A DNA stretch of 64,000 bases from Gammaproteobacteria bacterium. Its GTDB lineage: Bacteria > Pseudomonadota > Gammaproteobacteria > Steroidobacterales > Steroidobacteraceae. A program made the position numbers and the translations under genes. The notes beneath the pieces are model-generated. The model did not search any database and had not been told where the DNA came from. It saw only the letters and a list, made by a program, of their open reading frames with translations. The stretch is from contig JANXYK010000036.1 in NCBI GenBank assembly GCA_025350055.1, positions 1-64,000 of the forward strand, written 5' to 3'. Positions 3,227 to 57,178 of the stretch are shown in pieces; position 1 is the first letter of the stretch, and each line of letters starts with the position of its first letter.

Positions 3227-3270
3227 GGTTTTCTGGTGACGAATTTCGGCACTTGCGGCCGGGGCCGCAG

Positions 3271-3276
3271 AGTATA
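3271..3276 (-). promoter_or_regulatory. Candidate -10 element for the ubiG operon
   Basis: On the minus strand this reads TATACT, one base off the consensus TATAAT, about 45 bases upstream of the ubiG start. No good -35 hexamer stands at 16-18 bases. The call rests on the -10 match and position alone. Confidence 0.4.
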
Positions 3277-3303
3277 ACTAGCCCGCCGAAAAGTGGCGCC
3301 CTG

Positions 3304-3312
3304 TGTTAGAAT
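3304..3312 (+). promoter_or_regulatory. Candidate extended -10 promoter for gyrA
   Basis: The string TGTTAGAAT is an extended -10 (TGn plus TAGAAT) placed so that transcription would start about 20 bases before the gyrA ATG. No clear -35 box is seen, which is common for extended -10 promoters. An AGGG ribosome binding site follows before the ATG. Confidence 0.5.
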
Positions 3313-3338
3313 TTCGCGGCTAAAAACAGGGCTAATTC

Positions 3339-5942: not shown

Positions 5943-6000
5943 GCTGCTCTGCTAGACTCGCCGGCATTCCTGGCGACTGGCTTTTGAGCTGAGGACTGGC

Positions 6001-7080: not shown

Positions 7081-7086
7081 AGGTCC

Positions 7087-37250: not shown

Positions 37251-37337
37251 GATTTTGCTTGCCGTAGACATTGCCATGTCGCTAGCCTCGGTACCAGCGC
37301 TCGGGGAGCGAATTCTTGCATGGAGGTCTGTTTGGGC

Positions 37338-39193: not shown

Positions 39194-39206
39194 GGCGTGA
39201 GTGCTG

Positions 39207-41022: not shown

Positions 41023-41721
41023 ATGTCCGCGGATACGACCGACAGCTTTGATCTCAATACGCTCAACGACCAGGAGTTGACCGAGCAGGTTCATGATGAC
41101 CTGTACAACGGCCTGAAGGACGAGATCATCGCGGCCACCAATATTTTTCTGGCACGCGGCTGGGCACCCGCCAAAGTGCTGAACGACGCGCTGGTCGAAG
41201 GCATGCGCATCGTCGGCATCGATTTCCGCGACGGCATCCTGTTCGTGCCCGAGGTGCTGCTGGCCGCCAATGCGATGAAGGCGGGTATGGCGATCCTGCG
41301 GCCGCTGCTGGCGGAAACCGGCGCCGAACCCATCGGCAAGGTGGTGATCGGCACCGTCAAGGGCGACATCCACGACATCGGCAAGAACCTGGTTTCGATG
41401 ATGCTCGAGGGTGCGGGCTTCGAGGTGATCAACCTCGGCATCAACAACCCGGTGGAAAATTATCTGGCGGCACTCGAAGAGCACAAGCCCGACATCCTTG
41501 GCATGTCGGCGCTGCTGACCACCACCATGCCCTACATGAAGGTAGTCATCGATACGCTCAAGCAAAAGGGCCTGCGCGACAAGTACATCGTGCTGGTGGG
41601 CGGCGCTCCGCTCAATGACGAGTTCGCCAGGGCCATCGGCGCAGATGCCTATTGCCGTGACGCGGCCATTGCCGTGGAGACCGCCAAATCCATGATCGCG
41701 GCGCGGCGCGCCGCACGCTGA
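41023..41721 (+). CDS. Corrinoid methyl-carrier protein (MttC/MtbC-like)
   Basis: 232 residues in two parts: an N-terminal four-helix cap (about 15-95) and a Rossmann-like B12-binding domain. The cobalt-ligand motif reads GDIHDIGKNLV with His117 as the expected lower ligand, and further B12-site segments are ILGMSALLTTTMPYM and VLVGGAPLNDEFA. Such proteins shuttle a methyl group between a substrate-specific methyltransferase and a second methyltransferase; the cobalt cycles Co(I)/methyl-Co(III). A GGAG-type ribosome binding site precedes the ATG. First gene of the seven-gene operon running to the activator protein. Confidence 0.93.
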   Translation: MSADTTDSFDLNTLNDQELTEQVHDDLYNGLKDEIIAATNIFLARGWAPAKVLNDALVEGMRIVGIDFRDGILFVPEVLLAANAMKAGMAILRPLLAETGAEPIGKVVIGTVKGDIHDIGKNLVSMMLEGAGFEVINLGINNPVENYLAALEEHKPDILGMSALLTTTMPYMKVVIDTLKQKGLRDKYIVLVGGAPLNDEFARAIGADAYCRDAAIAVETAKSMIAARRAAR

Positions 41722-41724
41722 TCC

Positions 41725-42375
41725 ATGCCCGGGGTTCCCGAAGGCCTGCTGGTGATTGCCTGCGGAGCCTTGGCGCGCGAGATCGTGGCGCTCAAGCGCC
41801 TCAATGGCTGGTCAGCGCTAGAAGTCGAGTGCCTGCCGCCCGAGCTGCACAATCGTCCCGAACAAATTCCTGCGGCCGTGGAAGGCGCAATACACGCCGC
41901 GCGGGCGCGTCATGCGCGCATCTTTGTCGCCTATGCCGATTGCGGCACCGGCGGCCTGCTCGATGCGCTGCTCGAGAAGGAAGGCGTGCAGCGACTCCCG
42001 GGTGCGCACTGCTATGAGTTCTACGCGGGCGCTTCGGCCTTCGCGGCTCTTGCCGAAGAGCAGCCGGGCACCTTCTATCTCACCGACTTCCTGGTGCGAC
42101 ATTTCGAGCGCCTCGTGATCGAGGGCCTGGGACTCGATCGCCACCCGGAGCTGCGCGATGAATATTTCCGCAATTACCAACGTCTGGTGTACCTGGCGCA
42201 GTCACGCGATGTGGGATTGAGCGCCGCGGCGCGAGTCGCAGCCACTCGTCTGGGCCTGGCCTATGAAGAGCGGTACACGGGCTTTGGGGAGCTTGAAAGC
42301 AGCCTGGCACGGGCGGTCACGGTGCCCGTGGCAGCAGTGGGACCAGTACGGGAGCGGGCATCTTGGCGTCATTGA
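41725..42375 (+). CDS. DUF1638 domain protein linked to corrinoid methyltransferases
   Basis: 216 residues matching the DUF1638 family: LLVIACGALAREIVAL at the N-terminus, FVAYADCGTGGLLDALL and HCYEFYAGASAFAAL in the middle, and FYLTDFLVRHFERLVIEGLGL. Conserved Cys residues and the YADCG and CYEFY motifs suggest metal or cofactor handling. The family occurs with MttB-like and corrinoid proteins in methanogens and in some proteobacteria; no biochemical function is known to me. It begins three bases after the corrinoid gene, so the two are surely coexpressed. Confidence 0.85.
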   Translation: MPGVPEGLLVIACGALAREIVALKRLNGWSALEVECLPPELHNRPEQIPAAVEGAIHAARARHARIFVAYADCGTGGLLDALLEKEGVQRLPGAHCYEFYAGASAFAALAEEQPGTFYLTDFLVRHFERLVIEGLGLDRHPELRDEYFRNYQRLVYLAQSRDVGLSAAARVAATRLGLAYEERYTGFGELESSLARAVTVPVAAVGPVRERASWRH

Positions 42376-42686
42376 TCATCATTTCCTGGCGCGATATACC
42401 CTCGCAGGTAGTCGTCAAACGTGGCCGTGAGACCGCGAAGGTGCAGCTCACCGCGCGCTTCCAGGAGGCCATCGATCGCGCCGCAATGCGCGCCGGCAAA
42501 GGCAGCTCTGATGCCTACATCGCCGACTGGCAGCGCAGCGCCCCGGTGGCGTGCGGCGAGGACCTGCAGCAGGAAGCTGCGACTGCCGCTGCCGGGCTGG
42601 AAGCGCAGTTTTCCGATGAATATCTCGAACGCATGATTCGCGCCAAGGGCAATCATCCGCCGACTGAACCTGTGGGGCAGGGCTGA
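42363..42686 (+). CDS. PF13769 'virulence factor' family small protein
   Basis: 107-residue protein beginning MASLIIISWRDIPSQVVVK and continuing AIDRAAMRAGKGSSDAYI and PVACGEDLQQEA. This matches a small family labelled 'virulence factor', a name with no support in this setting; in genomes it accompanies corrinoid C1 genes. The start is TTG, overlapping DUF1638 by 13 bases; a second TTG three codons later overlaps its stop as TTGA, but the earlier start aligns better with the family. No membrane segment or known catalytic motif. A role as accessory subunit of the methyl-transfer or MetF/MetV system is inferred from position alone. Confidence 0.75.
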   Translation: MASLIIISWRDIPSQVVVKRGRETAKVQLTARFQEAIDRAAMRAGKGSSDAYIADWQRSAPVACGEDLQQEAATAAAGLEAQFSDEYLERMIRAKGNHPPTEPVGQG

Positions 42687-43165
42687 TGTACGCCGTGCGC
42701 CTGTGGTCGGTGCGGCACGCGCGTGGATTGGCGCGCTTCTACCAGGGTTTCGAGGCGCTGCTGGTGAAGCTCGCGCCGCTGTGGCGCAAGCTGGGCTACC
42801 AGCGGCTCGAGCGGCCGTTTGCGTTCATGGAACGGCGAGTCAAGGGTCTGTTGTTCGATTGCCAGATGTGCGGTCGCTGCGTGCTCAGCTCCACCGGCAT
42901 GTCCTGCCCGATGAACTGCCCGAAGCAGTTGCGCAATGGGCCCTGTGGTGGGGTGCGTACCAACGGCAATTGCGAGGTGAAGCCCGAGATGCGCTGCGTC
43001 TGGGTGGAGGCCTTCACCGGCGCCGAGCGCGTGCGCGGTGGCCTTGAGGCGATACGTGTGGTGCAGGAACCGGTCGATCGGCGCCTGGTGGGCAGCTCGG
43101 CCTGGCTGCGTGTGGCGCGCGAGAAGAACCCGGAACCGGTCAAGACGGTGGAGCCGCGGAAGTGA
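42686..43165 (+). CDS. Methylenetetrahydrofolate reductase C-terminal-type protein (MetV-like)
   Basis: 159-residue cysteine-rich protein. Eight cysteines stand at positions 59, 62, 65, 74, 78, 87, 96 and 104, including CQMCGRCVLSSTGMSCPMNC and GPCGGVR. This matches the zinc/iron-sulfur domain called MTHFR C-terminal, the MetV partner of MetF in acetogens. MetV shuttles electrons or stabilises MetF; here it would let the reductase couple methyl-THF oxidation to a carrier other than NADH. ATG overlaps the previous stop (TGATG), as does the next gene. Confidence 0.85.
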   Translation: MYAVRLWSVRHARGLARFYQGFEALLVKLAPLWRKLGYQRLERPFAFMERRVKGLLFDCQMCGRCVLSSTGMSCPMNCPKQLRNGPCGGVRTNGNCEVKPEMRCVWVEAFTGAERVRGGLEAIRVVQEPVDRRLVGSSAWLRVAREKNPEPVKTVEPRK

Positions 43166-44181
43166 TGTTCGAAGACGAACCGGTTCCGGGCTACCCCTTG
43201 CCGATACGCCCCGGGCATACCTCGCCGGGTCGCTTCGAGCGCCTGCTGCGCGCAGGTGCTTTTGCGATCACCGCCGAGCTCGCGCCGCCTGATTCGGCTG
43301 ACCCGGAGGATGTCTACAAGCGGGCGCGGGTGTTCGAGGGCTATGTGGATGCCATCAATGCCACTGATGGGAGCGGCGCGAACTGCCACATGTCGAGCCT
43401 CGCGGTCTGCGCGCTGCTGACCCGCATCGGCCACGCGCCGGTGATGCAGATCTCCTGCCGCGATCGCAACCGCATTGCGATCCAGGGCGATATCCTGGGC
43501 GGCGCGGCGATGGGCGTGTGCAACATCCTCTGCCTCACGGGCGATGGCGTTCAGGCCGGTGATCATCCGCAGGCCAAACCGGTGTTCGACCTCGATTCCC
43601 CGGCGCTGCTGAAGATCGCGCGTACGCTGCGCGATGAGCATCACTTCCAGAGTGGCCGCAAGATCAGTTACGCGCCGCGGGTATTCCTGGGTGCGGCCGA
43701 GAATCCGATGGTGCCGCCGCTGGCGCTGCGCGCGCTGCGGCTCGCCAAGAAGGTCGAGGCCGGTGCACAGTTCATCCAGACGCAATACTGCTACGACATG
43801 GAACGCCTGCGCGAATTCATGCGCTCAGTGGAAGACCTGGGGCTGCTCGACAAGGTGTTCCTGCTGATCGGCGTTGGCCCGCTACGCTCGGCCAAGACCG
43901 CCGAATGGATGCGCAAGAACGTGCCCGGCATGCATGTACCCGATGCGCTGATCAAGCGCCTGGCGGGCGCCGCCGACCAGGTGCGCGAGGGCCGCAACTA
44001 CTGCATCGAACTCATCCAGGAGCTGCGCACCATCAAGGGTGTCGCCGGCGTGCATGTGATGGCCTATCGCCAGGAAGAACTGGCTGCGCAGATCATCGAG
44101 CACTCGGGCGCGCTTGCGGGCCGCGTGCCCTGGCGGCCGGCGGCGGATATTCCGGATTTGACCCACAGGAATGCATCATGA
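43165..44181 (+). CDS. Methylenetetrahydrofolate reductase (MetF-like)
   Basis: 338-residue flavin-dependent TIM-barrel reductase. FAITAELAPPDSADPEDVYKRA contains the catalytic glutamate region, then INATDGSGANCHMSSLA, GVCNILCLTGDGVQAGDHPQ and GAQFIQTQYCYDMERLREFM are family blocks. It interconverts methyl- and methylene-tetrahydrofolate; with a methyl donor upstream the oxidative direction is likely. Coupled to MetV by overlapping codons. This is probably not the biosynthetic metF of methionine synthesis. The C-terminal 30 residues run into the start of the next gene. Confidence 0.9.
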   Translation: MFEDEPVPGYPLPIRPGHTSPGRFERLLRAGAFAITAELAPPDSADPEDVYKRARVFEGYVDAINATDGSGANCHMSSLAVCALLTRIGHAPVMQISCRDRNRIAIQGDILGGAAMGVCNILCLTGDGVQAGDHPQAKPVFDLDSPALLKIARTLRDEHHFQSGRKISYAPRVFLGAAENPMVPPLALRALRLAKKVEAGAQFIQTQYCYDMERLREFMRSVEDLGLLDKVFLLIGVGPLRSAKTAEWMRKNVPGMHVPDALIKRLAGAADQVREGRNYCIELIQELRTIKGVAGVHVMAYRQEELAAQIIEHSGALAGRVPWRPAADIPDLTHRNAS

Positions 44182-45098
44182 CGGACACGATCATCAGTTC
44201 GGCCACGCGCGAAGTGGTCATCGGCTTCGACCGGCCCTTTGTCATCATCGGCGAGCGCATCAATCCCACGGGTCGCAAGATCCTCGCGGCCGAGATGGCG
44301 GCGGGTGATTTCAGCCGCGTCGAAGCCGATGCGCTGGCGCAGGTGGAAGCGGGCGCACACATGCTCGATGTGAATGCCGGCATCCCGCTGGCCGATGAGC
44401 CCGCGATCCTCGCCAAGGCGGTGCAACTGGTGCAGTCGATCACCGATGTGCCGCTGTCGATCGATTCCTCGATCGTCGCCGCGTTGGCGGCCGGGCTTGC
44501 GGTCTACAAGGGCAAGGCGCTGATCAATTCGGTTACCGGCGAGGAAGAGCGGCTCGAGGTCGTGCTGCCGCTGGTAAAGAAATATGGCGCGGCGGTGGTC
44601 GCGATCTCCAATGACGAGACCGGCATCTCCGAAGACCCCGATGTCCGCTTCGAAGTGGCGAAGAAGATCGTGCATCGTGCGCAGGACCACGGTATCCCGG
44701 TGTCGGACGTGATCGTCGATCCGCTGGTGATGCCGATCGGCGCGATCAACCAGGCCGGCGTGCAGGTGATGCGGCTGGTGCGGCGCCTCAAGGATGAACT
44801 CAAAGTGAATACCACCTGCGGCGCCTCGAACGTGAGCTTCGGCCTGCCGGGGCGCGACGGCGTCAACAGCGCCTTCCTGACGATGGCGATTGCCTCGGGC
44901 CTGACCTCGGCGATCACCAATCCGCTGCACGGCGATATCGTGCGCGCCTGCATGGGCGCGGATGTCATGATGGGCCATGATCCGGACTGCACGCGCTGGA
45001 TCCGCAAGTTCCGCGAGAGCGCACCGGCTCCGACCGGTGCAGCCGGCGAGCCGCGTGGTCGTCGCGAAGGCGGTCACCGACGCCGTCCAACGGCCTGA
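44178..45098 (+). CDS. Methyltetrahydrofolate:corrinoid methyltransferase (pterin-binding family)
   Basis: 306 residues of the DHPS-like pterin-binding barrel. PFVIIGERINPTGRK at the N-terminus, MLDVNAGIPLADE, PLSIDSSIVAAL and NTTCGASNVSFGLPGRDGVN match the MtvA/AcsE/CmuB-type proteins that move a methyl group between a corrinoid protein and tetrahydrofolate. In this operon it would take the methyl from the upstream corrinoid protein. The last 25 residues, GAAGEPRGRREGGHRRRPTA-like, form a basic tail that is not part of the fold. The ATG overlaps the end of the reductase gene by four bases. Confidence 0.9.
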   Translation: MTDTIISSATREVVIGFDRPFVIIGERINPTGRKILAAEMAAGDFSRVEADALAQVEAGAHMLDVNAGIPLADEPAILAKAVQLVQSITDVPLSIDSSIVAALAAGLAVYKGKALINSVTGEEERLEVVLPLVKKYGAAVVAISNDETGISEDPDVRFEVAKKIVHRAQDHGIPVSDVIVDPLVMPIGAINQAGVQVMRLVRRLKDELKVNTTCGASNVSFGLPGRDGVNSAFLTMAIASGLTSAITNPLHGDIVRACMGADVMMGHDPDCTRWIRKFRESAPAPTGAAGEPRGRREGGHRRRPTA

Positions 45099-45125
45099 GC
45101 GCGCAGGCGCGGTAGAAGGGCACGC

Positions 45126-47141
45126 TTGAGTACCGGCGACGCACTGGTTGTCTTCTCACCGTCCGGAAAGCGTGCGCGCTTTCCGGTCGGCACGCCGTTG
45201 CTGACTGCAGCGCGGGCACTCGGTGTCGATATCGATTCCGTGTGCGGTGGCCGCGCGATGTGCGGGCGCTGCCAGGTGATGGTCACGGAAGGCGAGTTCG
45301 CCAAATACGGTGTGCAATCCTCCGCCGCCAGTCTCTCCGCTGTTGGCGATACCGAAAAGCGCTTCGCCACGCGACTGAAGCTGCAGCCCGGCCGGCGCCT
45401 TTCCTGTCAGGCGCGGGTCGAGGCCGATGTGGTCGTCGATGTGCCCGAATCCAGCCAGGTGCATCGCCAGGTGATCCGCAAGGCCGCCGAAGCCCGCGAC
45501 ATCGAACTGTATCCCGTGGTGCGCCTGCACTACGTGGAGGTGGCTGAGCCTGACATGCACGATCCCTCGGGCGATCTGCGCCGGCTGGAAGTGGCGTTGC
45601 AGCGCGAGTGGCAGCTGGAACACCTGGACTGCGATCTCGCGGTGCTTCAGCAGCTCCAGACCGTGCTGCGCGCCGGCCACTGGAAGGTCACGGTCGCCGT
45701 GCACGATGCTGCGCGCATCATTGCCGTGTGGCCCGGGTTCCACGAGCGCGGTTACGGCCTGGCCGTCGATGTGGGTTCCACCACGATCGCCGCGCACCTG
45801 TGCGATCTCACCAATGGCGAGGTGGTCGCCTCGGCCGGCACGATGAACCCGCAGATCCGCTTCGGCGAAGACCTGATGAGCCGGGTCTCCTATTCGATGA
45901 TGAATCCTGGCGGCGCGCAGCAGATGACCGCCGCCGTGCGCCAGGCGCTCACGGAACTCGCGGGCCAGGTGGCCTTGTCGGCCGGCATCGAGCGCGAGTG
46001 GATCCTCGAGGCGACCATTGTCGGCAATCCGATCATGCATCACCTGGTGCTGGGCATCGATCCGGTGGAGCTGGGTGGCGCGCCTTTTGCACTCGCCATC
46101 GATCGTTCGCTGACCGTGACAGCTGCCGAAATCGATGTAACTCTGAATCCCGGCGCGCGCGTTTATTTCCTGCCTTGCATCGCCGGCCACGTGGGCGCCG
46201 ATACCGCGGGTGTGATACTTGCCGAGCGGCCCGATGAACAGGATCCGATGACGCTGCTGGTGGACGTCGGCACCAATGCCGAGATCGTGCTCGGCAACCG
46301 CAAGCGGCTGCTGGCCTGCTCGAGCCCGACGGGCCCGGCTTTCGAAGGCGCGCAGATCAGCTGCGGGCAACGCGCGGCACCCGGCGCGATCGAGCGCGTG
46401 CGCATTGATCGCGAGACCCTGGAACCACGCGTTCGCGTGATCGGCTCCGAACTCTGGTCCGATGATCCGGGCTTTGCGGCCGCAACTGCGGTGACCGGCG
46501 TTACCGGTATCTGTGGCTCGGGCATCATCGAAGTGCTGGCCGAGCTGTACCTGGCCGGCGTGATCACGCAGGACGGTGTGATCGATGGCAGCATGGCCGC
46601 ACGCACGCCGCGCGTGGTTGCGCACGGCCGCACCCACGCCTACGTGCTGCATGAGGGCGCACAGACGCTGCGCATTACGCAGAACGACGTGCGCGCGATC
46701 CAGCTCGCCAAGGCCGCGCTGTACGCGGGCATCCGCCTGCTGATGGATCGCTTGGGAGTCGACAGCGTCGAGCGAATCCGCCTCGCCGGCGCCTTTGGCA
46801 GCCATATCGATGTGAAGTACGCGACGGTGCTCGGCATGATTCCCGACTGCGATTTGCAGCACGTCACCTCGGCTGGAAATGCCGCCGGCACGGGCGCGCG
46901 CATCGCACTGCTGGATTCGCGCTCGCGTGCCACGATCGAGCGCCTGGTCAGCCAGGTGGAAAAGATCGAAACCGCGATCGAGCCGCAGTTCCAGGCGCAC
47001 TTCGTCGATGCGATGGCGATTCCGCACAAGACGGCCAGCTACGTGCACCTGCGGCGCGTGGTCGATTTGCCGGCACCGAAAGCCGCGCCAACGCCCACCG
47101 GTGGCCGCGGCGCGCGCGGCCGGCGGCCCGGTCCGGCCTAG
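45126..47141 (+). CDS. Ferredoxin-domain corrinoid-activating protein (RACE/DUF4445, ASKHA fold)
   Basis: 671 residues. The N-terminus is a plant-type 2Fe-2S domain with SVCGGRAMCGRCQV: cysteines 40, 46 and 49 plus Cys94 (LSCQARV). A linker follows, then a large DUF4445 domain of the ASKHA fold with YGLAVDVGSTTIAAHLCDL, LLVDVGTNAEIVLG and IRLAGAFGSHIDVKYA. Reductive activators of corrinoid enzymes (RACE) use ATP and the cluster to reduce inactive Co(II) to Co(I). The start is TTG 27 bases after the methyltransferase; the C-terminal tail is Pro/Arg-rich. The gene ends four bases into the convergent quinone-reductase gene. Confidence 0.88.
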   Translation: MSTGDALVVFSPSGKRARFPVGTPLLTAARALGVDIDSVCGGRAMCGRCQVMVTEGEFAKYGVQSSAASLSAVGDTEKRFATRLKLQPGRRLSCQARVEADVVVDVPESSQVHRQVIRKAAEARDIELYPVVRLHYVEVAEPDMHDPSGDLRRLEVALQREWQLEHLDCDLAVLQQLQTVLRAGHWKVTVAVHDAARIIAVWPGFHERGYGLAVDVGSTTIAAHLCDLTNGEVVASAGTMNPQIRFGEDLMSRVSYSMMNPGGAQQMTAAVRQALTELAGQVALSAGIEREWILEATIVGNPIMHHLVLGIDPVELGGAPFALAIDRSLTVTAAEIDVTLNPGARVYFLPCIAGHVGADTAGVILAERPDEQDPMTLLVDVGTNAEIVLGNRKRLLACSSPTGPAFEGAQISCGQRAAPGAIERVRIDRETLEPRVRVIGSELWSDDPGFAAATAVTGVTGICGSGIIEVLAELYLAGVITQDGVIDGSMAARTPRVVAHGRTHAYVLHEGAQTLRITQNDVRAIQLAKAALYAGIRLLMDRLGVDSVERIRLAGAFGSHIDVKYATVLGMIPDCDLQHVTSAGNAAGTGARIALLDSRSRATIERLVSQVEKIETAIEPQFQAHFVDAMAIPHKTASYVHLRRVVDLPAPKAAPTPTGGRGARGRRPGPA

Positions 47142-48229
47142 AGCACCAGCACGATCTTGCCGATATGCGCCTTGCGCAGGAACTGTTCCTGCGCAGCGTG
47201 AATATCGCGCAGCGCATAGGTCGCGCTGACCAGCGGTCTGATTTGGCCGCGCTCGATATATCCCAGCAGCTGGGTGAAGAGCGCGGGCTCGGGAATCGTG
47301 CAGCCCAGCAGCGCCAGGTCCTTGAGATAAAGCAGGCGCAGGTCCAGTTCGACGATCGCGCCGCCAATGGCACCGGCAACGGCGTAGCGGCCGCCGTGTT
47401 TGAGCAATCTCGGGAACTGCGGGAACTGCGCACCGCCCACGCAGTCGATCACGACATCCACGGACTCCTGTCCCAGGGCTGCCAGCAGGTCGGCTTCGCG
47501 CGGCAATACCTGTGCTGCGCCCAGTGTCCGCAGCGCCTGTGCCTTTGAGGAGTCTGCGATGGCGATCACCCGCGCGCCGCGACGCAAGGCCAGCTGGATG
47601 GCAGCGGTGCCCACGCCTCCAGAGGCACCAGTAACCAGCACGGTTTCGCCGCGCTTGAGGGCGGCGCGCGATACCATGTTTTCCGCTGCCAGGCTGGAGC
47701 AGGGGAAGCTGGCGAGTTCGACATCGCTGAGGGTGCTGTGCACGGCATGCGCGTTGGCAGCTGGAACGGTCATGAACCGGGCAAAGGCGCCGTCGCGATC
47801 GGCGCCCAGATAACCCGTTTCCTCCGCCGCACTCCCCGCACCCGAGCCGCCGCGCAACACCGGATCAACGAGCACGCGCTCGCCGATGCGATCCGATGCG
47901 ACGCCATCACCTACCGCCACGATGTGCCCGCAGGCGTCCGCGCCCTGGATCCTGGGAAACTGGAAAGCCGCACCGGTCCAGGCACTGTCCTGAACCGCGC
48001 TCCCCGCACCTGATGCCACGGGAGCGACCGCATCGCCGGGTCGCGCCGCGCGCGAATACCAGCCCGTGCGTGTGTTGATATCGGTGTTGTTGACCGCCGC
48101 TGCGCTTACGCGCACCAGCACCTCACCGCTCGCAGGCCTGGACACAGGCAGATCGTCGCGGATCTCCAGCTGCTCGGGGCCGCCCAGTCCCAGCAGCCGC
48201 ACGGCCAGCATCGTGCGCGGCAACGGCAT
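47138..48229 (-). CDS. Zinc-free alcohol dehydrogenase / NADPH:quinone reductase family protein
   Basis: 363 residues of the medium-chain dehydrogenase fold. An N-terminal GroES-like domain (AAVNNTDINTRTGWYSR) carries about 30 extra residues near position 65-90; the NADPH motif is VLVTGASGGVGTAAIQLA. Zinc-binding cysteines of alcohol dehydrogenases are absent, which points to the quinone oxidoreductase branch. Last gene of the operon aldehyde dehydrogenase-cobS-cobT-GFA-this, one base after the GFA stop. Substrate unknown. Its stop overlaps the convergent activator gene. Confidence 0.83.
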   Translation of the reverse strand: MPLPRTMLAVRLLGLGGPEQLEIRDDLPVSRPASGEVLVRVSAAAVNNTDINTRTGWYSRAARPGDAVAPVASGAGSAVQDSAWTGAAFQFPRIQGADACGHIVAVGDGVASDRIGERVLVDPVLRGGSGAGSAAEETGYLGADRDGAFARFMTVPAANAHAVHSTLSDVELASFPCSSLAAENMVSRAALKRGETVLVTGASGGVGTAAIQLALRRGARVIAIADSSKAQALRTLGAAQVLPREADLLAALGQESVDVVIDCVGGAQFPQFPRLLKHGGRYAVAGAIGGAIVELDLRLLYLKDLALLGCTIPEPALFTQLLGYIERGQIRPLVSATYALRDIHAAQEQFLRKAHIGKIVLVL

Positions 48230-48230
48230 T

Positions 48231-48629
48231 TCAGTGCCACTGTTCGTAACGATACCCTTCTTCAGGAATGCTGTAGTAGTCGCCGTGATCGGCGCAGTAG
48301 ATGTGTCCTTCGATCTTGAGTCCGGTCTTGCCCTCGATCGTGCCGGCCGTGATGGAGATCGTGTCGGCGCCGTCGGCTTGCCAGAACAACGTCGAACCGC
48401 AGCTGGCGCAGAAGCCGCGTCTGGCAGTGGGGGAGGCGCGGTACCAGCGCAGCGCGCTCTCGCCCGTCAGGCGGAAATCCGCGAGCTTCGCATTGGTCGC
48501 TGCCATGAAGTGACCAGTCTGCTTGCGACATTGCGTGCAGTGGCAGGCGATCACATCGCGCAGCGGCCCGTGCACCTCGTAGCTGCAGGCACCACACAGG
48601 CAGGAACCCCAAAAGACTTTGTCATTCAT
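48231..48629 (-). CDS. GFA (CENP-V) family zinc protein
   Basis: 132-residue protein of the glutathione-dependent formaldehyde-activating fold. Zinc-binding cysteines occur in [24 protein letters not shown] and [13 protein letters not shown]. Most members have unproven function; true Gfa enhances glutathione adduct formation with formaldehyde. Given that amine demethylation can release formaldehyde, a detoxifying role would fit, but it is an inference. It overlaps the cobT-like stop as ATGA. Confidence 0.87.
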
Positions 48630-50494
48630 CTGCTGCTCCTTCGACGCGTCTGGGCACGGCGCTTGGCGCTGACCTTGGCCGGCTGCTGCTCGAAAAGCCT
48701 GGCCAGCTGCGTGGTCATGGCCGCGCCCAGCTGCTCGGCGCCAGCAATGGTCAGTGCCCGCTGGTAGAAATCGCTGACATCATGACCGATGCCGATGGCC
48801 AGCAGTTCTATGCGCGTATGCTTTTCGATCCAGCGCACCACGTTGCGCAGGTGCTGCTCGAGGTAGCTGCCGGGATTGGCCGACAGCGTGGCCTCATCGA
48901 GCGGCACGCCGTCGGAGATCACCATCAGGATGCGCCGACTCTCGCTGCGCCGCTCCAGGCGATCGTGCGCCCACATCAGGGCCTCGCCATCGATGTTTTC
49001 CTTCAGCAGTTCCTCGCGCAGCATCAGGCCCAGGTTGCGACGCGCACGCCGCCACGGGGAATCGGCTGATTTATAGACAATGTGCAGCAACTCGCCCAGC
49101 CGCCCGGGCGATGGCGGGGCACCGCCAGCGAGCCAGTCATTGCGCGCGGCGCCACCTTTCCAGGCCTGTGTGGTGAAGCCGAGGATCTCCACCTTGACCC
49201 CACAGCGCTCCAGCGTGCGTGCCAGTACATCGGCGCACAGTGCCGCCAGCATGATGGGCCGGCCGCGCATCGACCCGGAATTGTCGATCAGCACGCTGAC
49301 CACGGTGTCGCGGAAATCCGTCTCCTGTTCTTCCTTGAAGGACAGCGGCATCAAGGGATCGATGATCACGCGCGTGAGCCGCGCGGCATCCAGCACGCCC
49401 TCTTCGAGATCGAAGCGCCAGCGCCGCAGTTGCCTGCTGAGCAGCAGGCGTTCGAGCCGGTTGGCCAGCCGTGCGACCGTGGCCTGCAGGGGCCGCGATT
49501 CGCGATCGAGTACTTCGCGCAGGCGCTGCAACTCCACTTCATCTGCCAGGCGCTCGGCGTCCACGGTCAGATCGTGGGCGCGCGTGTAGGCGCGGTAGTT
49601 GCGATTCGGGTCGTCCGGATCATCGTGGAACTGCGCGCGTTGCATGCGTTCGCCGGCGCGCGCGCGCTCCTCGGCTCGTTCGCCGTCCTTCGCTTTGTCG
49701 TCAGGCAATTCAATCGGCGCCTTGGCTTCGACGACATCGTCGTCCTGCTCGAGCTCGCCGGCCTGCCGCTTGATCTGCAGGATGCTGCTGGCAGGTGCTT
49801 CGGTTTTCTTACGCTTGCGCTCGGCGTTGACTGAACTCTCGTTGGCCTGCTCCGCGCGCTGCGCCGCCGTGCCGATCTCCGCGCCCAGGTCGAGCCGTCG
49901 CAGCATCTTGTGCAGCAGCTGCGCGTAGCGGGTCTGGTCGCTCCCGGCCTCTGCCAGCACCGACAACTCCGCGGCTGCGCGGGTTTCGAGCTCGGAACGC
50001 CAGCGCTGCAGCAAGGGTGCGGCGGCGGGCGGCGAGGGCAAGCCGGTCAGGCGCTCACGCGCCAGCAGCGCCAGCGCGTGGACCATGCCGGAATGGCGCT
50101 CGAGCTGGCCGCGCGTGTACACGTCGTGCTCCAGCTGATCGACCAGCACCGCTTCCAGATTGCGGGCGATGCCGGTCATCACGCGGGCACCGAGCGCGTG
50201 GGAGCGCATATCCTCGAGCACGTCGTAGAGTTCGCGCGCGCGGGCGCCGCTGGGCCTGAAGCGTGCGTGCGTGCCTGGGTCGAAATGGGCGCGGCGCAGG
50301 GCCAGTCGATCCGCGAGGCCGCGGGTGCGGGCGCGTTCACGCGGACCACCGGGCAAGGGGAGCGGTGCAATCAGCAGGGACTTGACGGGCAGATCCGCAC
50401 GCGGCGGCCCGCAGTACACCGGCAGGTTCTTTTCGCCGGCCAGCGCGCGCGTGACCTGGATCAGCGTGCGCTCGAAGCGTTGCTCGCCGCTCAC
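48626..50494 (-). CDS. cobT: Cobaltochelatase CobT-like subunit (VWA domain)
   Basis: 622 residues. The N-terminal half is helical and charged, with an acidic/basic linker ([21 protein letters not shown]); the C-terminal third is a von Willebrand A domain with the MIDAS motif [13 protein letters not shown] and later [11 protein letters not shown]. This architecture matches CobT, which with CobS forms the AAA+ chaperone of the aerobic, CobN-dependent cobaltochelatase. The length and CobS neighbour support it over a generic VWA protein. GTG start overlaps the cobS stop. CobN is not in the window, so either it is elsewhere or the pair serves another metalloenzyme such as the corrinoid system here. 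Confidence 0.85.
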
Positions 50495-51474
50495 ACGATC
50501 TGCAGGCCGGCGATTGCCTCGGGCAGTTCGGTGCCAAAGGCGCGTTGGTAGAACTCGGCGACCGTGGGCCGCTCCAGCTCATCGCACTTGTTCAGAAAGG
50601 TGACGCGGAAGGCGAGGCCGGTGTCGCCAAAAATGGCAGCGTTCTCTGCCCAGGTAATCACGGTGCGCGGACTCATCACCGTGGAAATGTCGCCGTTCAT
50701 GAAAGCATTGCGGCTCATGTCGGCCACCAGCACCATCGCCATGATGGTGCGGCGCCCCTCGACACTGGCGTATTGCGGCGCCTTGCTGAGTACGATCGCC
50801 GCTTCCTTGTCGTGATCCAGGTAGTTGAGCGTGGTCACGATCGACCAGCGATCCATCTGACCCTGGTTGATCTGCTGCGTGCCGTGATAGAGGCCGCTGG
50901 TATCGCCAAGCCCGATCGTGTTGGTGGTCGCGAACAGCCGGAAAGCCGGGTGCGGGCTGATCACGCGATTCTGGTCGAGCAAGGTGAGTTTGCCGCTGGT
51001 CTCGAGCACGCGCTGGATCACGAACATCACGTCGGGGCGCCCGGCATCATACTCATCGAACAGCAGTGCGACCGAGCGCTGGATTGCCCAGGGCAGCATG
51101 CCCTCGCGAAACTCCGTGATCTGGTGATCATCGCGCACCACGATGGCATCACGCCCGACGAGGTCGATGCGACTCACATGGCCGTCAAGGTTGATGCGCA
51201 CCAGCGGCCAGTTCAGGCGCGCCGCGACCTGTTCCACATGCGTGGATTTACCGGTGCCGTGGAAGCCCTGCACCATCACCCGGCGGTTGTGCGCAAAGCC
51301 CGCCAGGATCGCCAGCGTGGTATCCGGATCGAAGCAGTAGCCCGGGTCGGTGTCGGGCACGTATTCGCTGCGCGAGGTGAATGCCGGTATCAACATGTCG
51401 CTGGGCACGCCAAAGCTGCGCGCCGAGACCTGCGCGTCCGGCCGGGCATTCAGGAGGTCCTCGACGTCGCTCAT
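50491..51474 (-). CDS. cobS: Cobaltochelatase CobS-like AAA+ ATPase
   Basis: 327-residue MoxR/CobS-type ATPase. After an N-terminal region with [20 protein letters not shown], the Walker A loop is GFHGTGKST (residues 70-78) and Walker B is [10 protein letters not shown] (Asp140-Glu141). The blocks [21 protein letters not shown] and [18 protein letters not shown] are characteristic of CobS. It forms a chaperone ring with CobT that drives cobalt insertion. Six bases separate it from the aldehyde dehydrogenase upstream, so cobalamin-related and amine-oxidation genes share a transcript. Confidence 0.9.
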
Positions 51475-51480
51475 GCCGCG

Positions 51481-52977
51481 TCAGCTGCCCAGGTGGATCC
51501 AGGCCGACTTGGTCTGCGTGTAACCCAGCAGGCACTCGAGGCACTTGTCGCGCCCCTGGCCCGACTGCTTGTAGCCGCCGAAGGGCTGCGTCATGTCGCC
51601 ATGATCGAAGCAGTTGACCCAGATCACGCCGGCTTCGAGATCGCGCACGGCGGTGTGCGCCTTGCGCAGATCGCGGGTCCAGACCGAGGCCGCGAGACCG
51701 TAGATGGAATCGTTGGCCACGGCCAGCGCTTCTTCCAGGCCATCGACCTCGATCGCGGAGGCCACGGGCCCGAAGATTTCCTCGCGCGCGATGGTCATCT
51801 TGCTGGTGACACCCGAATACAACGTCGGGTTCACGTAGGTGCCTGGCAGGTCGGGCGTGTCGCCACCGAACTCCAGCTTCGCGCCTTCGCGCTTGCCGCG
51901 CTCGATGTAGTCGAGCACGCGCTTCTGCTGCTTGCCGGTGACCAGCGGACCGAGGTTGGTGGCCGGGTCGAGCGGGTCGCCCGCGCGGTAGGCGTTGCGG
52001 CCCTGCTTGACGAAGCGCTCGATGAAGTCGCCGGCGATGCGTTTGTCGATGAGCAGCCGGGAACCCGCGTTGCAGACCTCGCCCATGTTGCCGTAGATGC
52101 CATTGATCGCGTAGGTCACCGCGCGGTCGATGTCTTCCAGGTCGGCCAGGAAGATCTGCGGCGACTTGCCGCCGCATTCCAGGCTCACGCGCTTCATGTT
52201 CGACTGACCGGCGTACACCAACATTTGCTTACCGATGGTGGTGGAACCGGTAAAAGCAATTTTCGCCACATCGTTGTGCAAGGCGAGCGCGGCACCGGCG
52301 GTGGGGCCCAGGCCGTTCACCACGTTGAACACGCCGGGCGGACCGCCGGCTTCGACGAACAGCTGCGCCAGCAGCAGACCCGAGAGCGGTGATTGCTCGG
52401 CGGGCTTCAACAGCACCGAATTGCCGGCGGCCAGTGCGGGAGCCACTTTCCAGGCGCTCATCAGCAAGGGGTAATTCCAGGGCACGATGCAGCCGACCAC
52501 ACCGAGCGGTTCGCGCAGGATGTAGTGCAGGGCATCGGCAGCGGTCGAGGTCACCGCGCCCTCGATCTTGTCGCACAATTCGCCGAAATAGCTGAAATTC
52601 TGCGCTGCCGACGGGACATCGATATTCAGCATGTCGTTGACGGGTTTGCCCATGCACAGGCAGTCGAGCAGCGCAAAGCGATCGGCATTGGCCTGGATCA
52701 GCTGCGCCATGCGCTGCAGTACCGCCATGCGATCGCGCGGCGCCATACGGCGCCAGATGCCCGACTTGAAGGCGCGCAGGCCCGAGGCCACGGCGCGATC
52801 GATATCGGTGGCGCTGCCGGCGGCCACCTCGCACAGGGGCGTGCCAGTGGCCGGATTGATCACGCTGAAACGCTCGGCGCCACCGGCAATCTGTTCGCCA
52901 TCGAGAAAATGCCCCGTGGGATAACGAAGTTCCCGGGCGCGCTGCTGCCATTGCTGTTTGGTGGCTGGTTCGGTCAC
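51481..52977 (-). CDS. Aldehyde dehydrogenase (betaine aldehyde / aminobutyraldehyde type)
   Basis: 498 residues. VPWNYPLLMSAWKVAPALAA binds NAD, SLECGGKSPQIFLAD carries the catalytic glutamate and GNMGEVCNAGSRLL the nucleophile Cys. The overall pattern resembles PuuC and BetB-like enzymes that oxidise amino-aldehydes. It starts with GTG preceded by AGGAG. As first gene of an operon beside MttB-like and choline dehydrogenase-type genes, betaine aldehyde is a reasonable substrate guess; formaldehyde is unlikely by family. Divergent from the MttB-like gene across a 107-base gap. Confidence 0.87.
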   Translation of the reverse strand: MTEPATKQQWQQRARELRYPTGHFLDGEQIAGGAERFSVINPATGTPLCEVAAGSATDIDRAVASGLRAFKSGIWRRMAPRDRMAVLQRMAQLIQANADRFALLDCLCMGKPVNDMLNIDVPSAAQNFSYFGELCDKIEGAVTSTAADALHYILREPLGVVGCIVPWNYPLLMSAWKVAPALAAGNSVLLKPAEQSPLSGLLLAQLFVEAGGPPGVFNVVNGLGPTAGAALALHNDVAKIAFTGSTTIGKQMLVYAGQSNMKRVSLECGGKSPQIFLADLEDIDRAVTYAINGIYGNMGEVCNAGSRLLIDKRIAGDFIERFVKQGRNAYRAGDPLDPATNLGPLVTGKQQKRVLDYIERGKREGAKLEFGGDTPDLPGTYVNPTLYSGVTSKMTIAREEIFGPVASAIEVDGLEEALAVANDSIYGLAASVWTRDLRKAHTAVRDLEAGVIWVNCFDHGDMTQPFGGYKQSGQGRDKCLECLLGYTQTKSAWIHLGS

Positions 52978-53002
52978 GTTAAGTGCTCCTCGTTGCGTGC
53001 GC

Positions 53003-53063
53003 GGCGCCCCGGCGGCGCCAAATCCTGCGATGATATGCCCTGTTACCCATCTGCTACGATGGG
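53003..53063. promoter_or_regulatory. Two dyads in the gap between the aldehyde dehydrogenase and MttB-like genes
   Basis: GGCGCC (53003-53008) repeats at 53014-53019 with a five-base loop, a hairpin. CCCATC (53046-53051) and GATGGG (53058-53063) form a perfect dyad; the -10-like TACGAT (53055-53060) overlaps its right arm. Placement about 25 bases before the MttB-like start is what an operator over a promoter would show. The GGAG ribosome site of the MttB-like gene follows. Confidence 0.4.
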
Positions 53064-53084
53064 CCTCGAGCGGAGAACCACCAG

Positions 53085-54704
53085 GTGTCTGAGAGTTCGA
53101 ATGTTACACGACGCCCGTCCGGGCGTGATGCCCGTCGCGCTGCGCGCGCTGCGCCTTTGCCCGATCACCTGCGGCCGGCCCGTCCGGGCATGTCCAGCGG
53201 GCGTTATCAGCCGCTGAGTCAGACGGATACACAGCAGGTCCACCAGACGGCGCTGCGCCTGCTGGCGGAAGTCGGCCTTGCCGACGCGACGCCCTCGGGC
53301 GTCGAATACATGCTGGCGGCGGGCTGTACGCTGAGTGAGGCAGGCAGGGTGCTGTTTCCGCGGGCACTGGTCGAGGACACGATTGCCAGGGCGGCGCGAA
53401 ATTTCACCCTGCCCGGACAGGATCCGCGCCACGACCTGGAGCCCTGGGGCAAGCGGGCCTATTTCGGCACGGCCGGTGCCGCCGTGAACATGGTCGATCA
53501 GCACGGCGCCTATCGCGAATCGACCATCCAGGATCTGTACGACATCGGCCGCATCGTCGATGTGATGGAGCACATCCATTTCTTCCAACGCGCGGTCGTG
53601 CCGCGCGATCTGCCCGATCCTTTCGAGATGGATTTCAACACTTGCTACGCGGCGGTCTCGAGCACCACCAAGCATGTGGGCAGCAGCTGGGTGCAACCCG
53701 AACATCTGGAAGCCTCGTTGCAGATGCTGCACGCGATTGCCGGCGGCGAGCAGCAGTGGCGCGAGCGACCCTTCGTCAGCCAGTCGAACTGCTTCGTGGT
53801 GCCGCCGATGAAGTTTGCCACCGATGCCTGCCGCTGCCTCGAAGTGGCTGTGCGCGGCGGCATGCCGGTGCTGCTGCTTTCGGCGGGGCAGGCTGGTGCC
53901 ACTGCACCTGCCGCACTCGCGGGCGCGCTGGCGCAGGAAGTCGCTGAAGTCCTGGCCGGGCTCGTCTATGTGAATGCGATAAAGCCCGGGCATCCGGCGA
54001 TCTTCGGCACCTGGTGCTTTGTCTCCGACCTGCGCACTGGTGCGATGTCGGGCGGCAGCCCCGAACAGGCGCTGCTGTCATCAGCCGCAGGGCAGATGGC
54101 GAACTTCTACAATCTGACCGGTGGCACCGCCTCGGGCATGACCGATTCAAAAGTCGCCGATAGCCAGTCGGGCGCCGAGAAGGCGCTCAATCACGCGCTG
54201 GTCGGCAATTCCGGCGCCAACCTGATCTATGAATCCGCTGGCATGCATGCCAGTCTCCTCGGCTTCTCGCTCGAGAGCCTGGTGATCGACAATGACATCA
54301 TCGGTGCCGCCCAGCGCACCATCAAAGGCATCGAGGTTACCGAGGAGCGCTTGTCCTTCGATACCATCCGCGATGTCTGCCTCAACGGGCCAGGACATTT
54401 CCTCGGCAGCGATCAGACCCTGCAACTGATGCAGTCCGAATATCTCTATCCCACGGTCGGCGACCGGCGTAGCCCCAACGAATGGGCGGAACAGGGCTCG
54501 CAGGATGTACTGCAACGCGCCGCGACGAAGGTGCAGGAGATCCTCACCCAGCATTTCCCCACGCACATACCCGAAGCCGTGGATGCGGCGATCCGGCGCC
54601 AGTTCCCGGTGCGCCTCGCACGCGCGAGCATGGTCAAAGGCGGCAACCTGATCGCCGACACCGCTGACACCACTCCGGGCGCGGCGCGCCAGGTAATCGC
54701 CTAG
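53085..54704 (+). CDS. Trimethylamine methyltransferase (MttB-like) family protein
   Basis: 539 residues of COG5598. Recognisable blocks are LYDIGRIVDVMEHIHFFQRA, SSTTKHVGSSWV, PVLLLSAGQAGATAPAALAG and TGGTASGMTDSKVADSQSGA followed by the LIYESAGM segment. No in-frame amber codon interrupts the gene, so it is a non-pyrrolysine member; characterised relatives of that kind demethylate glycine betaine (MtgB), proline betaine or carnitine, whereas pyrrolysine MttB uses trimethylamine. The expected reaction is methyl transfer to the corrinoid protein encoded 12 kb away. Starts with GTG after GGAG. Its end is four bases before the dimethylglycine dehydrogenase-like gene. The N-terminal 35 residues are basic and disordered in look. 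Confidence 0.9.
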   Translation: MSESSNVTRRPSGRDARRAARAAPLPDHLRPARPGMSSGRYQPLSQTDTQQVHQTALRLLAEVGLADATPSGVEYMLAAGCTLSEAGRVLFPRALVEDTIARAARNFTLPGQDPRHDLEPWGKRAYFGTAGAAVNMVDQHGAYRESTIQDLYDIGRIVDVMEHIHFFQRAVVPRDLPDPFEMDFNTCYAAVSSTTKHVGSSWVQPEHLEASLQMLHAIAGGEQQWRERPFVSQSNCFVVPPMKFATDACRCLEVAVRGGMPVLLLSAGQAGATAPAALAGALAQEVAEVLAGLVYVNAIKPGHPAIFGTWCFVSDLRTGAMSGGSPEQALLSSAAGQMANFYNLTGGTASGMTDSKVADSQSGAEKALNHALVGNSGANLIYESAGMHASLLGFSLESLVIDNDIIGAAQRTIKGIEVTEERLSFDTIRDVCLNGPGHFLGSDQTLQLMQSEYLYPTVGDRRSPNEWAEQGSQDVLQRAATKVQEILTQHFPTHIPEAVDAAIRRQFPVRLARASMVKGGNLIADTADTTPGAARQVIA

Positions 54705-54708
54705 CTGC

Positions 54709-57168: not shown

Positions 57169-57178
57169 GCAGCGCGCG

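What the first reader, a model, noticed from the sequence alone, without database searches (positions are those of the whole stretch)
41023..54704. Corrinoid methyl-transfer system in a host with oxygen-using enzymes
A corrinoid carrier, MttB-like methyltransferase, methyl-THF:corrinoid methyltransferase, MetF/MetV and a reductive activator together form a complete demethylation chain. Such chains are characterised in acetogens, sulfate reducers and methanogens; the same locus here carries sarcosine oxidase and dimethylglycine dehydrogenase-like genes, which use oxygen or a respiratory chain. Co(I) corrinoids are oxygen sensitive, so the system would need protection or work at low oxygen. The three methyltransferase partners are split over two operons.
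Basis: partly seen in the sequence, partly recalled or inferred. Interest (0 to 1): 0.85.

Follow-up and report, generated by a model that had tools for sequence, protein, structure and literature searches.

The report
Aerobic B12 methyl-transfer operon, uncharacterised demethylase partner
This oxygen-using bacterium carries a vitamin B12 relay for stripping methyl groups from betaine-like compounds that probably also makes its methionine; that relay is already known from other aerobes, but the methyl-removing enzyme beside it belongs to an apparently uncharacterised branch.

Summary
The genes are real and intact. The window holds a tight operon, mtgC - DUF1638 - PF13769 - metV - metF - mtgD - RACo (41023-47141), and a second operon, mttB - dmgdh1 - dmgdh2 (53085-59605). 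The first is the aerobic 'MtgCD' core shown genetically in Ruegeria pomeroyi (PMC12478193) and Phaeobacter inhibens (PMC5764234); its genes stand in the same order on Sinorhizobium meliloti pSymB. So the 'anaerobic chain in an aerobe' puzzle is already answered. First, no MetH was found in this genome, so the core is probably also its methionine synthase: MtgE is present, and mtgC and MetH tend to exclude each other in 60 related genomes. Second, the window MttB is not the glycine betaine methyltransferase. The likely MtgB lies on another contig (67% identical to S. meliloti MtgB). The window MttB sits in a separate, well supported clade with different residues at active-site landmarks, and it usually travels with two dimethylglycine-dehydrogenase-like flavoenzymes. 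Best reading: one corrinoid and two flavin demethylations of an unidentified quaternary amine. An orphan CobS-CobT pair beside it, with no CobN found, is unexplained.

The parts
41023..41721 (+). mtgC: stand-alone corrinoid (B12-binding) protein, shared methyl carrier
   Evidence: PF02607+PF02310; 75.8% identical to S. meliloti pSymB protein; only stand-alone corrinoid protein found in the genome at E<=0.001
41725..42375 (+). DUF1638 protein, role in corrinoid reactivation or handling inferred
   Evidence: PF07796 95.7 bits; C13, H42, C73, H95, C96 invariant in 51 of 51 aligned; P. inhibens homologue has fitness correlated with methionine synthase genes (PMC5764234)
42363..42686 (+). PF13769 'Virulence_fact' small protein, unknown role, operon member
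   Evidence: present in 64 of 80 named mtgC loci
42686..43165 (+). MetV-type (DUF5981) protein, Cys-rich
   Evidence: PF12225 93 bits; 8 Cys
43162..44181 (+). MetF-type methylenetetrahydrofolate reductase, probably run in the oxidative direction (inference)
   Evidence: PF02219 119 bits; a separate MetF (281 bits) is on contig C9 and a third (115 bits) on C31
44178..45098 (+). mtgD: methyl-THF:corrinoid methyltransferase
   Evidence: PF00809, PRK07535 365 bits over cut-off 259
45126..47141 (+). RACo/DUF4445 ASKHA reductive activator of the corrinoid protein
   Evidence: PF14574, PF17651, PF17650, PF00111; phmmer match to 3ZYY 322 bits
48626..50494 (-). CobT-like VWA protein (orphan: no CobN found in genome)
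   Evidence: TIGR01651 666 bits, below cut-off 759; PF02514 no match
50491..51474 (-). CobS-like AAA+ (MoxR-type) protein, only copy found in genome
   Evidence: TIGR01650 610.6 bits over cut-off 558.6
51481..52977 (-). aldehyde dehydrogenase, divergent from mttB
   Evidence: PuuC/betaine-aldehyde dehydrogenase-like, below cut-offs
53085..54704 (+). MttB-superfamily methyltransferase of a distinct clade (not MtgB)
   Evidence: PF06253 380 bits; clade and active-site residues
54709..57168 (+). dmgdh1: FAD/GcvT dimethylglycine-dehydrogenase-like demethylase
   Evidence: DAO+FAO_M+GCV_T+GCV_T_C; phmmer match to mitochondrial dimethylglycine dehydrogenase 5L46 470 bits
57179..59605 (+). dmgdh2: FAD/GcvT dimethylglycine-dehydrogenase-like demethylase
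   Evidence: same domains; phmmer match to 5L46 677 bits
61161..61706 (-). soxG-like gene at the end of the neighbouring operon mttB-B - soxB - soxD - soxA - soxG (most of it beyond the window end); soxG named from position, not by a profile

Best explanation
The locus is an aerobic, modular corrinoid methyl-transfer system of the MtgBCDE type. MtgC (41023-41721) is the single corrinoid carrier. MtgD moves methyl groups between MtgC and tetrahydrofolate, in both directions. RACo, with DUF1638, re-reduces oxidised Co(II) corrinoid. MetV-MetF oxidise methyl-THF for C1 catabolism. MttB proteins load MtgC from quaternary amines. With MtgE (contig C16) the same MtgC-MtgD core probably also makes methionine, because no MetH was found in the genome. 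The window's own MttB (53085-54704) is not the glycine betaine enzyme (that is most likely the copy on contig C9). It removes one methyl from another, unidentified quaternary amine, and the two adjacent flavoenzymes (54709-59605) remove the next two oxidatively onto THF. Shown: gene content, order, conservation, co-occurrence, clade, residues. Inferred: every catalytic step, the substrate, and the direction of MetVF.
For: S. meliloti pSymB has these genes in the same order, with others interposed; MtgC 75.8% identical. In the best 80 named mtgC loci: DUF1638 in 69, PF13769 in 64, mtgD in 64, RACo in 63, metV and metF in 33 each, canonical mtgB in 36. In 60 genomes (own included) mttB and mtgC: 22 both, 1 mttB only, 1 mtgC only, 36 neither, p=3.6e-14. 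In three loci a window-type mttB lies beside mtgC: 22 bases upstream in L090, within 3 kb in L061 and L088. No MetH-type B12 domain found, only stand-alone PF02574 proteins (open frames 349 and 334 aa), one PRK07534 at 474 bits over cut-off 338; no full-length MetE. MetH is rarer with mtgC: 9 of 23 against 30 of 37 (p=0.0018). Another MetF (281 bits) on C9. Window-type clade of 21 rows, support 100; C9 copy 67% to S. meliloti MtgB. Same-strand mttB-dmgdh1-dmgdh2 in 12 of 15 genomes with the orthologue.
Against: No activity, expression or growth data for this organism. Nine of 23 mtgC genomes also have MetH, so the methionine role is not universal. A MetE-C-terminal-like protein (31 bits, over Pfam's cut-off of 21; window 19901-20881) could in principle be a core-type methionine synthase. 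In R. pomeroyi the window-type mttB is on the megaplasmid, away from mtgC (SPO2160). One genome (G012, 83% complete) has the window-type mttB but no mtgC found. Two of 15 genomes carry the mttB without the two flavoenzymes nearby. The genome is a 76-contig draft at 96% completeness, so absences can be gaps. Relatives are phylogenetically correlated, so the p-values overstate independence. The tree is a quick build and its tool warns that long branches meet around the window-type clade.
Confidence: 0.8

Rival explanations
1. The 41023-47141 operon is essentially the cell's methionine synthase plus its reactivation factors; quaternary amine demethylation is minor or absent and the MttB genes use it only incidentally.
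For: MetH was not found and MtgE is present; the homologous proteins are needed for methionine in P. inhibens (PMC5764234) and R. pomeroyi (PMC12478193).
Against: mtgC tracks mttB almost perfectly (22/1/1/36), which a pure methionine synthase would not need; metV-metF sits in the operon although another metF (281 bits) exists elsewhere; the genome has five full mttB genes.
Confidence: 0.12
2. The window MttB is the glycine betaine methyltransferase, and dmgdh1/dmgdh2 simply finish glycine betaine to glycine.
For: dmgdh2 scores 677 bits by phmmer against mitochondrial dimethylglycine dehydrogenase 5L46; a sarcosine-oxidase operon lies next door; the Mesorhizobium homologue lies one gene from a transporter annotated as glycine betaine ABC transporter (ProX model 86 bits, below its cut-off of 215).
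Against: Separate clade from D. hafniense MtgB and from the mtgC-linked MtgB of S. meliloti; the residues at the MttB landmarks differ (window Gly131/Ala132/Ala267/Met352/Glu383; MtgB-type Tyr/Gly/Phe-or-Leu/Leu/His); the C9 copy is 67% identical to S. meliloti MtgB; S. meliloti and this genome carry both types.
Confidence: 0.2
3. The window MttB is a degenerate or non-catalytic paralogue.
For: It is the second-lowest scoring of the five full copies against PF06253 (380 bits; the five range from 268 to 776) and lacks the Tyr and His conserved in the MtgB clade.
Against: Full-length, residues invariant across the compared MttB rows kept, own-clade landmarks 90-100% conserved in 21 sequences from Alpha- and Gammaproteobacteria, conserved operon.
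Confidence: 0.05

Closest known systems
Aerobic MtgBCDE of Ruegeria pomeroyi / Sinorhizobium meliloti / split MetH of Phaeobacter inhibens (PMC12478193, PMC5764234)
   Same: Stand-alone corrinoid MtgC, pterin-binding MtgD, DUF1638, RACo/RamA-like protein, extra MetF, MtgE elsewhere, no MetH found; S. meliloti pSymB has the shared genes in the same order, though S. meliloti also has MetH.
   Different: Here core genes and RACo form one compact operon in a gammaproteobacterial draft genome with no CobN or CbiC found; the neighbouring MttB is not the MtgB type; MetV (0 occurrences in that paper's main text) and PF13769 (not seen in the parts I read) are operon members.
MtgB glycine betaine methyltransferase, Desulfitobacterium hafniense (PDB 2QNE, 9YCE)
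   Same: Same MttB family, no pyrrolysine; phmmer 217 bits to the window MttB.
   Different: Different clade and different residues at the landmark positions.
Pyrrolysine MttB trimethylamine methyltransferase (PDB 7XCL)
   Same: Superfamily; phmmer 208 bits.
   Different: Met352 in place of Pyl334, no in-frame TAG in the window gene; TIGR02369 365 bits against cut-off 525.
Acetogen corrinoid/THF chain (AcsE-type methyltransferase, MetVF, RACo/AcsV)
   Same: MtgD, MetVF and RACo are homologous modules.
   Different: NF040756 (AcsV) 402 bits against cut-off 800; I did not look for the Wood-Ljungdahl carbonyl branch.
Mitochondrial-type dimethylglycine dehydrogenase (PDB 5L46, 4P9S)
   Same: Full four-domain architecture; WHAAG motif in both window proteins, recalled as the covalent FAD site.
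   Different: Substrate unknown; operon partner is a corrinoid methyltransferase.

Membership tests
Aerobic MtgBCDE system (PMC12478193) | Stand-alone MtgC of the proteobacterial type | tested here: met
   75.8% identity to the S. meliloti pSymB protein next to mtgB; only stand-alone corrinoid protein found in genome
Aerobic MtgBCDE system (PMC12478193) | Stand-alone pterin-binding MtgD | tested here: met
   window 44178-45098, PRK07535 over cut-off
Aerobic MtgBCDE system (PMC12478193) | RamA/RACo-like protein and DUF1638 | tested here: met
Aerobic MtgBCDE system (PMC12478193) | MtgE homocysteine-binding module | tested here: met
   contig C16:7470-8297, PRK07534 474 bits over cut-off 338; not in the window; that this family is MtgE/Bmt rests on its title and the bmt annotation
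Aerobic MtgBCDE system (PMC12478193) | MtgB orthologue | tested here: met
   contig C9:99435-100946, 67% to S. meliloti mtgC-linked MtgB; not in the window
Aerobic MtgBCDE system (PMC12478193) | Usually no MetH | tested here: met
   draft 96% complete
Aerobic MtgBCDE system (PMC12478193) | Mutant is a methionine auxotroph and cannot use glycine betaine | not testable with these tools
   -
MtgB glycine betaine methyltransferase (for window MttB) | Falls in the MtgB clade | tested here: not met
   tree of 89 rows, window type (21 rows) is one side of a branch with support 100 (quick method, SH-aLRT only, long-branch warning)
MtgB glycine betaine methyltransferase (for window MttB) | MtgB-type residues at MttB landmarks 110, 111, 249, 334, 364 | tested here: not met
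   that these residues contact glycine betaine is inference
MtgB glycine betaine methyltransferase (for window MttB) | Demethylates glycine betaine with a corrinoid protein | not testable with these tools
   -
Pyrrolysine MttB | Pyl (in-frame TAG) at position 334 | tested here: not met
   Met352
Anaerobe MtgC (NF047995, NF047996) | Curated score cut-off | tested here: not met
   175 and 212 bits against 310 and 370
Cobaltochelatase CobNST (for window CobS/CobT) | CobN large subunit in the genome | tested here: not met
   PF02514 no match; also no CbiC/CobH PF02570; draft genome
RACo reductive activator | 2Fe-2S, linker, middle and ASKHA C-terminal domains | tested here: met

The most novel reading that the evidence does not exclude
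The window-type MttB with its two dimethylglycine-dehydrogenase-like partners defines an uncharacterised aerobic pathway, shared by Alpha- and Gammaproteobacteria including S. meliloti and R. pomeroyi. It strips all three methyl groups from a quaternary amine other than glycine betaine, one by corrinoid and two by flavin, and shares its single corrinoid carrier with methionine synthesis. A bolder rider, to which I give only about 0.08: the orphan CobS-CobT pair (AAA+ and VWA, without CobN, in a genome that seems unable to make the corrin ring) is an ATP-driven loading or repair machine for the corrinoid protein.
Probability: 0.4. Interest if true: 0.6.

Novelty: new member of a known kind. Interest (0 to 1): 0.4.

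Why it matters
It shows the aerobic corrinoid betaine and methionine system, operon-organised, in a gammaproteobacterial family outside the marine model strains, and suggests that one core serves several MttB proteins of different specificity. The apparently uncharacterised MttB clade, present in tractable S. meliloti and R. pomeroyi, gives a directly testable route to a new osmolyte-degrading activity. If the orphan CobS-CobT pair acts on corrinoid enzymes, it would help explain why these genes persist in bacteria without cobalamin synthesis; that is only a hypothesis.

Tried and rejected
Rejected: 'oxygen paradox'. The same core works in R. pomeroyi and in aerobically grown P. inhibens. Rejected: pyrrolysine or a recoded stop in the MttB. 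There is no in-frame TAG; the apparent stops in three relatives' hits (L158, L159, L167) are ordinary C-terminal stops.

Tried, not conclusive: CobS as a requirement for MtgC. CobS over cut-off occurs in 8 of 60 genomes, 7 of which have mtgC (p=0.0037), but with the looser threshold it is 7 of 11 (p=0.086), 16 of 23 mtgC genomes lack it, and the control Caulobacter has CobS while CobN, CbiC and PF06253 did not ring there. So it is not required.

Substrate guess from context: the R. pomeroyi homologue sits with a class III aminotransferase-like protein and an Xsc-like TPP enzyme (PRK07525 401 bits, cut-off 620). This would fit a taurine-betaine-like substrate there, but I did not see those genes at the window locus, so I do not adopt it. 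The search for the R. pomeroyi gene by tag used three guessed old locus tags besides the RefSeq tag and protein accession; it listed one paper, on small RNAs, holding one of the guessed tags, which I did not open. In the main text of PMC12478193 'SPOA' occurs 0 times; its supplements were not available to me. Searches listed no paper that I could recognise from title or abstract as characterising this clade. Apart from PMC12478193, PMC9842639 and PMC8604678 (passages of the last two) I opened none of those listed, so 'uncharacterised' rests on these listings.

Weaknesses of my counts: the presence sets were typed by hand. MetH was assigned (31-38% identity, 70 bits or more, open frame 500 aa or more), not by a MetH profile; mtgC means hits of 58% identity or more (including partial hits in G004 and G019, and G031, which lacks the operon neighbours). 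The 15-genome trio count comes from 13 regions fetched plus the own locus and L061; some of these contigs end within the region. The 587 relatives are tblastn matches at E 0.001 and may include other corrinoid proteins; only the best 80 (73-89% identity) were examined.


Full report
What is there. The first operon runs mtgC 41023-41721, DUF1638 41725-42375, PF13769 42363-42686, metV (DUF5981) 42686-43165, metF 43162-44181, mtgD 44178-45098, RACo 45126-47141, with gaps between neighbours from -13 to +27 bases. The second runs mttB 53085-54704, dmgdh1 54709-57168, dmgdh2 57179-59605, with gaps of 4 and 10 bases, then an amidohydrolase 41 bases on. Between them, on the minus strand, lie an aldehyde dehydrogenase, CobS, CobT, a small protein and a quinone-oxidoreductase-like gene. 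Beyond the window end the contig continues with a further operon, mttB-B - soxB - soxD - soxA - soxG, preceded by a LysR gene; soxB, soxD and soxA pass the NCBIfam cut-offs. The soxA that looks truncated in the window is only cut by the window end.

Host. The genome is a 3.29 Mb draft of 76 contigs, 96.3% complete, with one clear haem-copper oxidase (530 bits) and a second family member (191 bits, 758-aa frame) that could instead be a nitric oxide reductase. A same-genus genome (G002) holds the contig JANYLH010000014.1, a MAG titled Gammaproteobacteria bacterium: the reverse complement of L077 is found whole, by 50-base words, in the G002 stretch L056.

Known system. Mausz and colleagues (PMC12478193; parts 1-4 of 6 read, passages in 96) showed that R. 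pomeroyi MtgC and MtgD are needed for both glycine betaine growth and methionine synthesis, and that MetF2, RamA and DUF1638 rise on N-osmolytes. Price and colleagues (PMC5764234; passages) showed the split methionine synthase of P. inhibens with the DUF4445 and DUF1638 proteins; they note that S. meliloti has these two proteins and MetH too. S. meliloti pSymB carries, in this order, mtgB (opposite strand), mtgC, DUF1638, a formyl transferase, the PF13769-type 'virulence factor', MetV, MetF, mtgD, a hypothetical gene and the ASKHA (RACo) gene, with a further hypothetical gene and three small genes on the other strand interposed. The shared genes stand in the window's order. In those 80 loci I found DUF1638 in 69, PF13769 in 64, mtgD in 64, RACo in 63, metV and metF in 33 each, a canonical mtgB in 36 and mtgE in 14. 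Many loci are cut by contig ends, so these are lower bounds.

Dual use. In the own genome the MtgC query finds only itself and a short 27%-identical match in a 1176-aa frame, likely a mutase. PF02574 finds two stand-alone proteins, one of which passes PRK07534, 'betaine--homocysteine S-methyltransferase', the name S. meliloti bmt (MtgE) also bears. PF01717 gives one match of 31 bits, over Pfam's cut-off of 21, to part of a 336-aa frame inside the window; it is not a full-length MetE. So MtgC-MtgD-MtgE is the likely methionine synthase. Across 60 genomes (own included): mtgC and MetH together 9, mtgC only 14, MetH only 30, neither 7 (p=0.0018); in the 47 better genomes 6, 13, 26, 2 (p=1.4e-5). 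Without the own genome the 59 give 9, 13, 30, 7 (p=0.0037). MttB and mtgC together: 22 both, 1 mttB only (G012, 83% complete), 1 mtgC only (G031), 36 neither. The p-values ignore relatedness.

The MttB is not MtgB. The genome has five full-length MttB genes and one broken one. In a tree of 89 rows (quick method, SH-aLRT support) all 21 window-type rows form one side of a branch with support 100, while the C9 copy, the S. meliloti mtgC-linked MtgB and D. hafniense MtgB lie together in a 64-row fork with support 99; the root and the long M. barkeri branch are uncertain, and the tool warns of long branches meeting around the window-type clade. Identities: window MttB 57% to a second S. meliloti MttB, 46% to the R. 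pomeroyi megaplasmid MttB, 26-27% to MtgB-type; C9 copy 67% to S. meliloti MtgB. At landmarks named for M. barkeri MttB (PMC9842639, passages) the window type has Gly131, Ala132, Ala267, Met352, Glu383, conserved in 90-100% of 21 rows. The 22 MtgB-type rows have Tyr, Gly, Phe, Leu, His in 95-100%, and D. hafniense MtgB (numbering of the 9YCE chain) has Tyr95, Gly96, Leu230, Leu315, His346. I infer a different substrate; no source I read states which of these residues touch glycine betaine.

The trio. Fifteen of 60 genomes carry the window-type MttB at 58% identity or more. Same-strand mttB-dmgdh1-dmgdh2 is seen in 12 of these 15 (one with an intervening gene), a divergent dmgdh1 in one (G055), none in the fetched stretch in two (G026, G020). 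In the five alphaproteobacterial plasmid regions read, one or two such flavoenzymes lie next to the gene or one gene away, once in divergent orientation. Both window flavoenzymes match mitochondrial dimethylglycine dehydrogenase (5L46) over nearly their whole length. A window-type mttB lies 22 bases upstream of mtgC in a Gammaproteobacteria MAG (L090) and within 3 kb of it in L061 and L088, which favours MtgC as its carrier.

Direction of MetVF. Another MetF on contig C9 (281 bits) can serve methionine synthesis, leaving the operon's MetVF free to oxidise methyl-THF, as proposed for MetF2 of R. pomeroyi. This is inference.

Unexplained: CobS and CobT. The genome has CobS and CobT but I found neither CobN nor CbiC/CobH, so it probably takes up its corrinoid, and this pair is not a working cobaltochelatase. 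The association of CobS with mtgC is weak and not necessary.

DUF1638. A confident model matches no solved fold above background. Cys13, His42, Cys73, His95 and Cys96 are invariant in 51 of 51 sequences, which would suit a metal or corrinoid site.

Verdict. The open lead is the substrate of the separate MttB clade.

Noticed in passing
window 48626-51474 (-): Orphan CobS-CobT pair in a genome where no CobN or CbiC was found; ALDH-cobS-cobT-gfa-qor in the same order in relative L184, and without a gfa match in L192.
   Followed up: partly
window 41725-42375 (+): DUF1638 has five invariant Cys/His residues in 51 aligned sequences and no clear solved fold relative.
   Followed up: partly
window 42363-42686 (+): PF13769, named 'Virulence_fact', is a steady member of corrinoid methyl-transfer operons (64 of 80 named loci); the name is probably misleading.
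   Followed up: partly
window 19901-20881 (-): MetE-C-terminal-like protein of 326 aa, PF01717 match of 31 bits (cut-off 21), possibly a core-type methionine synthase or a relative.
   Followed up: partly
L009 (G000:C18:60000-70062), 1162-7954 (-): Second MttB directly upstream of a complete soxBDAG sarcosine-oxidase-type operon, of which only soxG and part of soxA lie in the window.
   Followed up: partly
L012 (G000:C33:28000-42000), about 6.1-6.9 kb: Broken MttB copy (fragments, one TGA) beside soxA-like and dimethylglycine-dehydrogenase-like genes.
   Followed up: no
L148 11917-21237 (R. pomeroyi megaplasmid): Window-type MttB with an aminotransferase, two FAD demethylases and an Xsc-like TPP enzyme; hints at a sulfonate-type betaine there.
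   Followed up: partly
L149 9370-11650 (S. meliloti pSymB): The dmgdh1-like match upstream of the window-type mttB falls in two pieces with no gene listed there, so this copy may be broken in that strain.
   Followed up: no
L068 (CALQLF020000018.1): Contig filed under Candidatus Planktophila lacus (Actinomycetota) has the window's gene order (hibadh, lysR, gmc, mtgC operon) at 63-90% identity; probably mis-binned.
   Followed up: no
window 37320-40817: hibadh - lysR - gmc block upstream of mtgC is conserved in relatives L048 and L049; a possible regulator and alcohol dehydrogenase for the same regulon.
   Followed up: no
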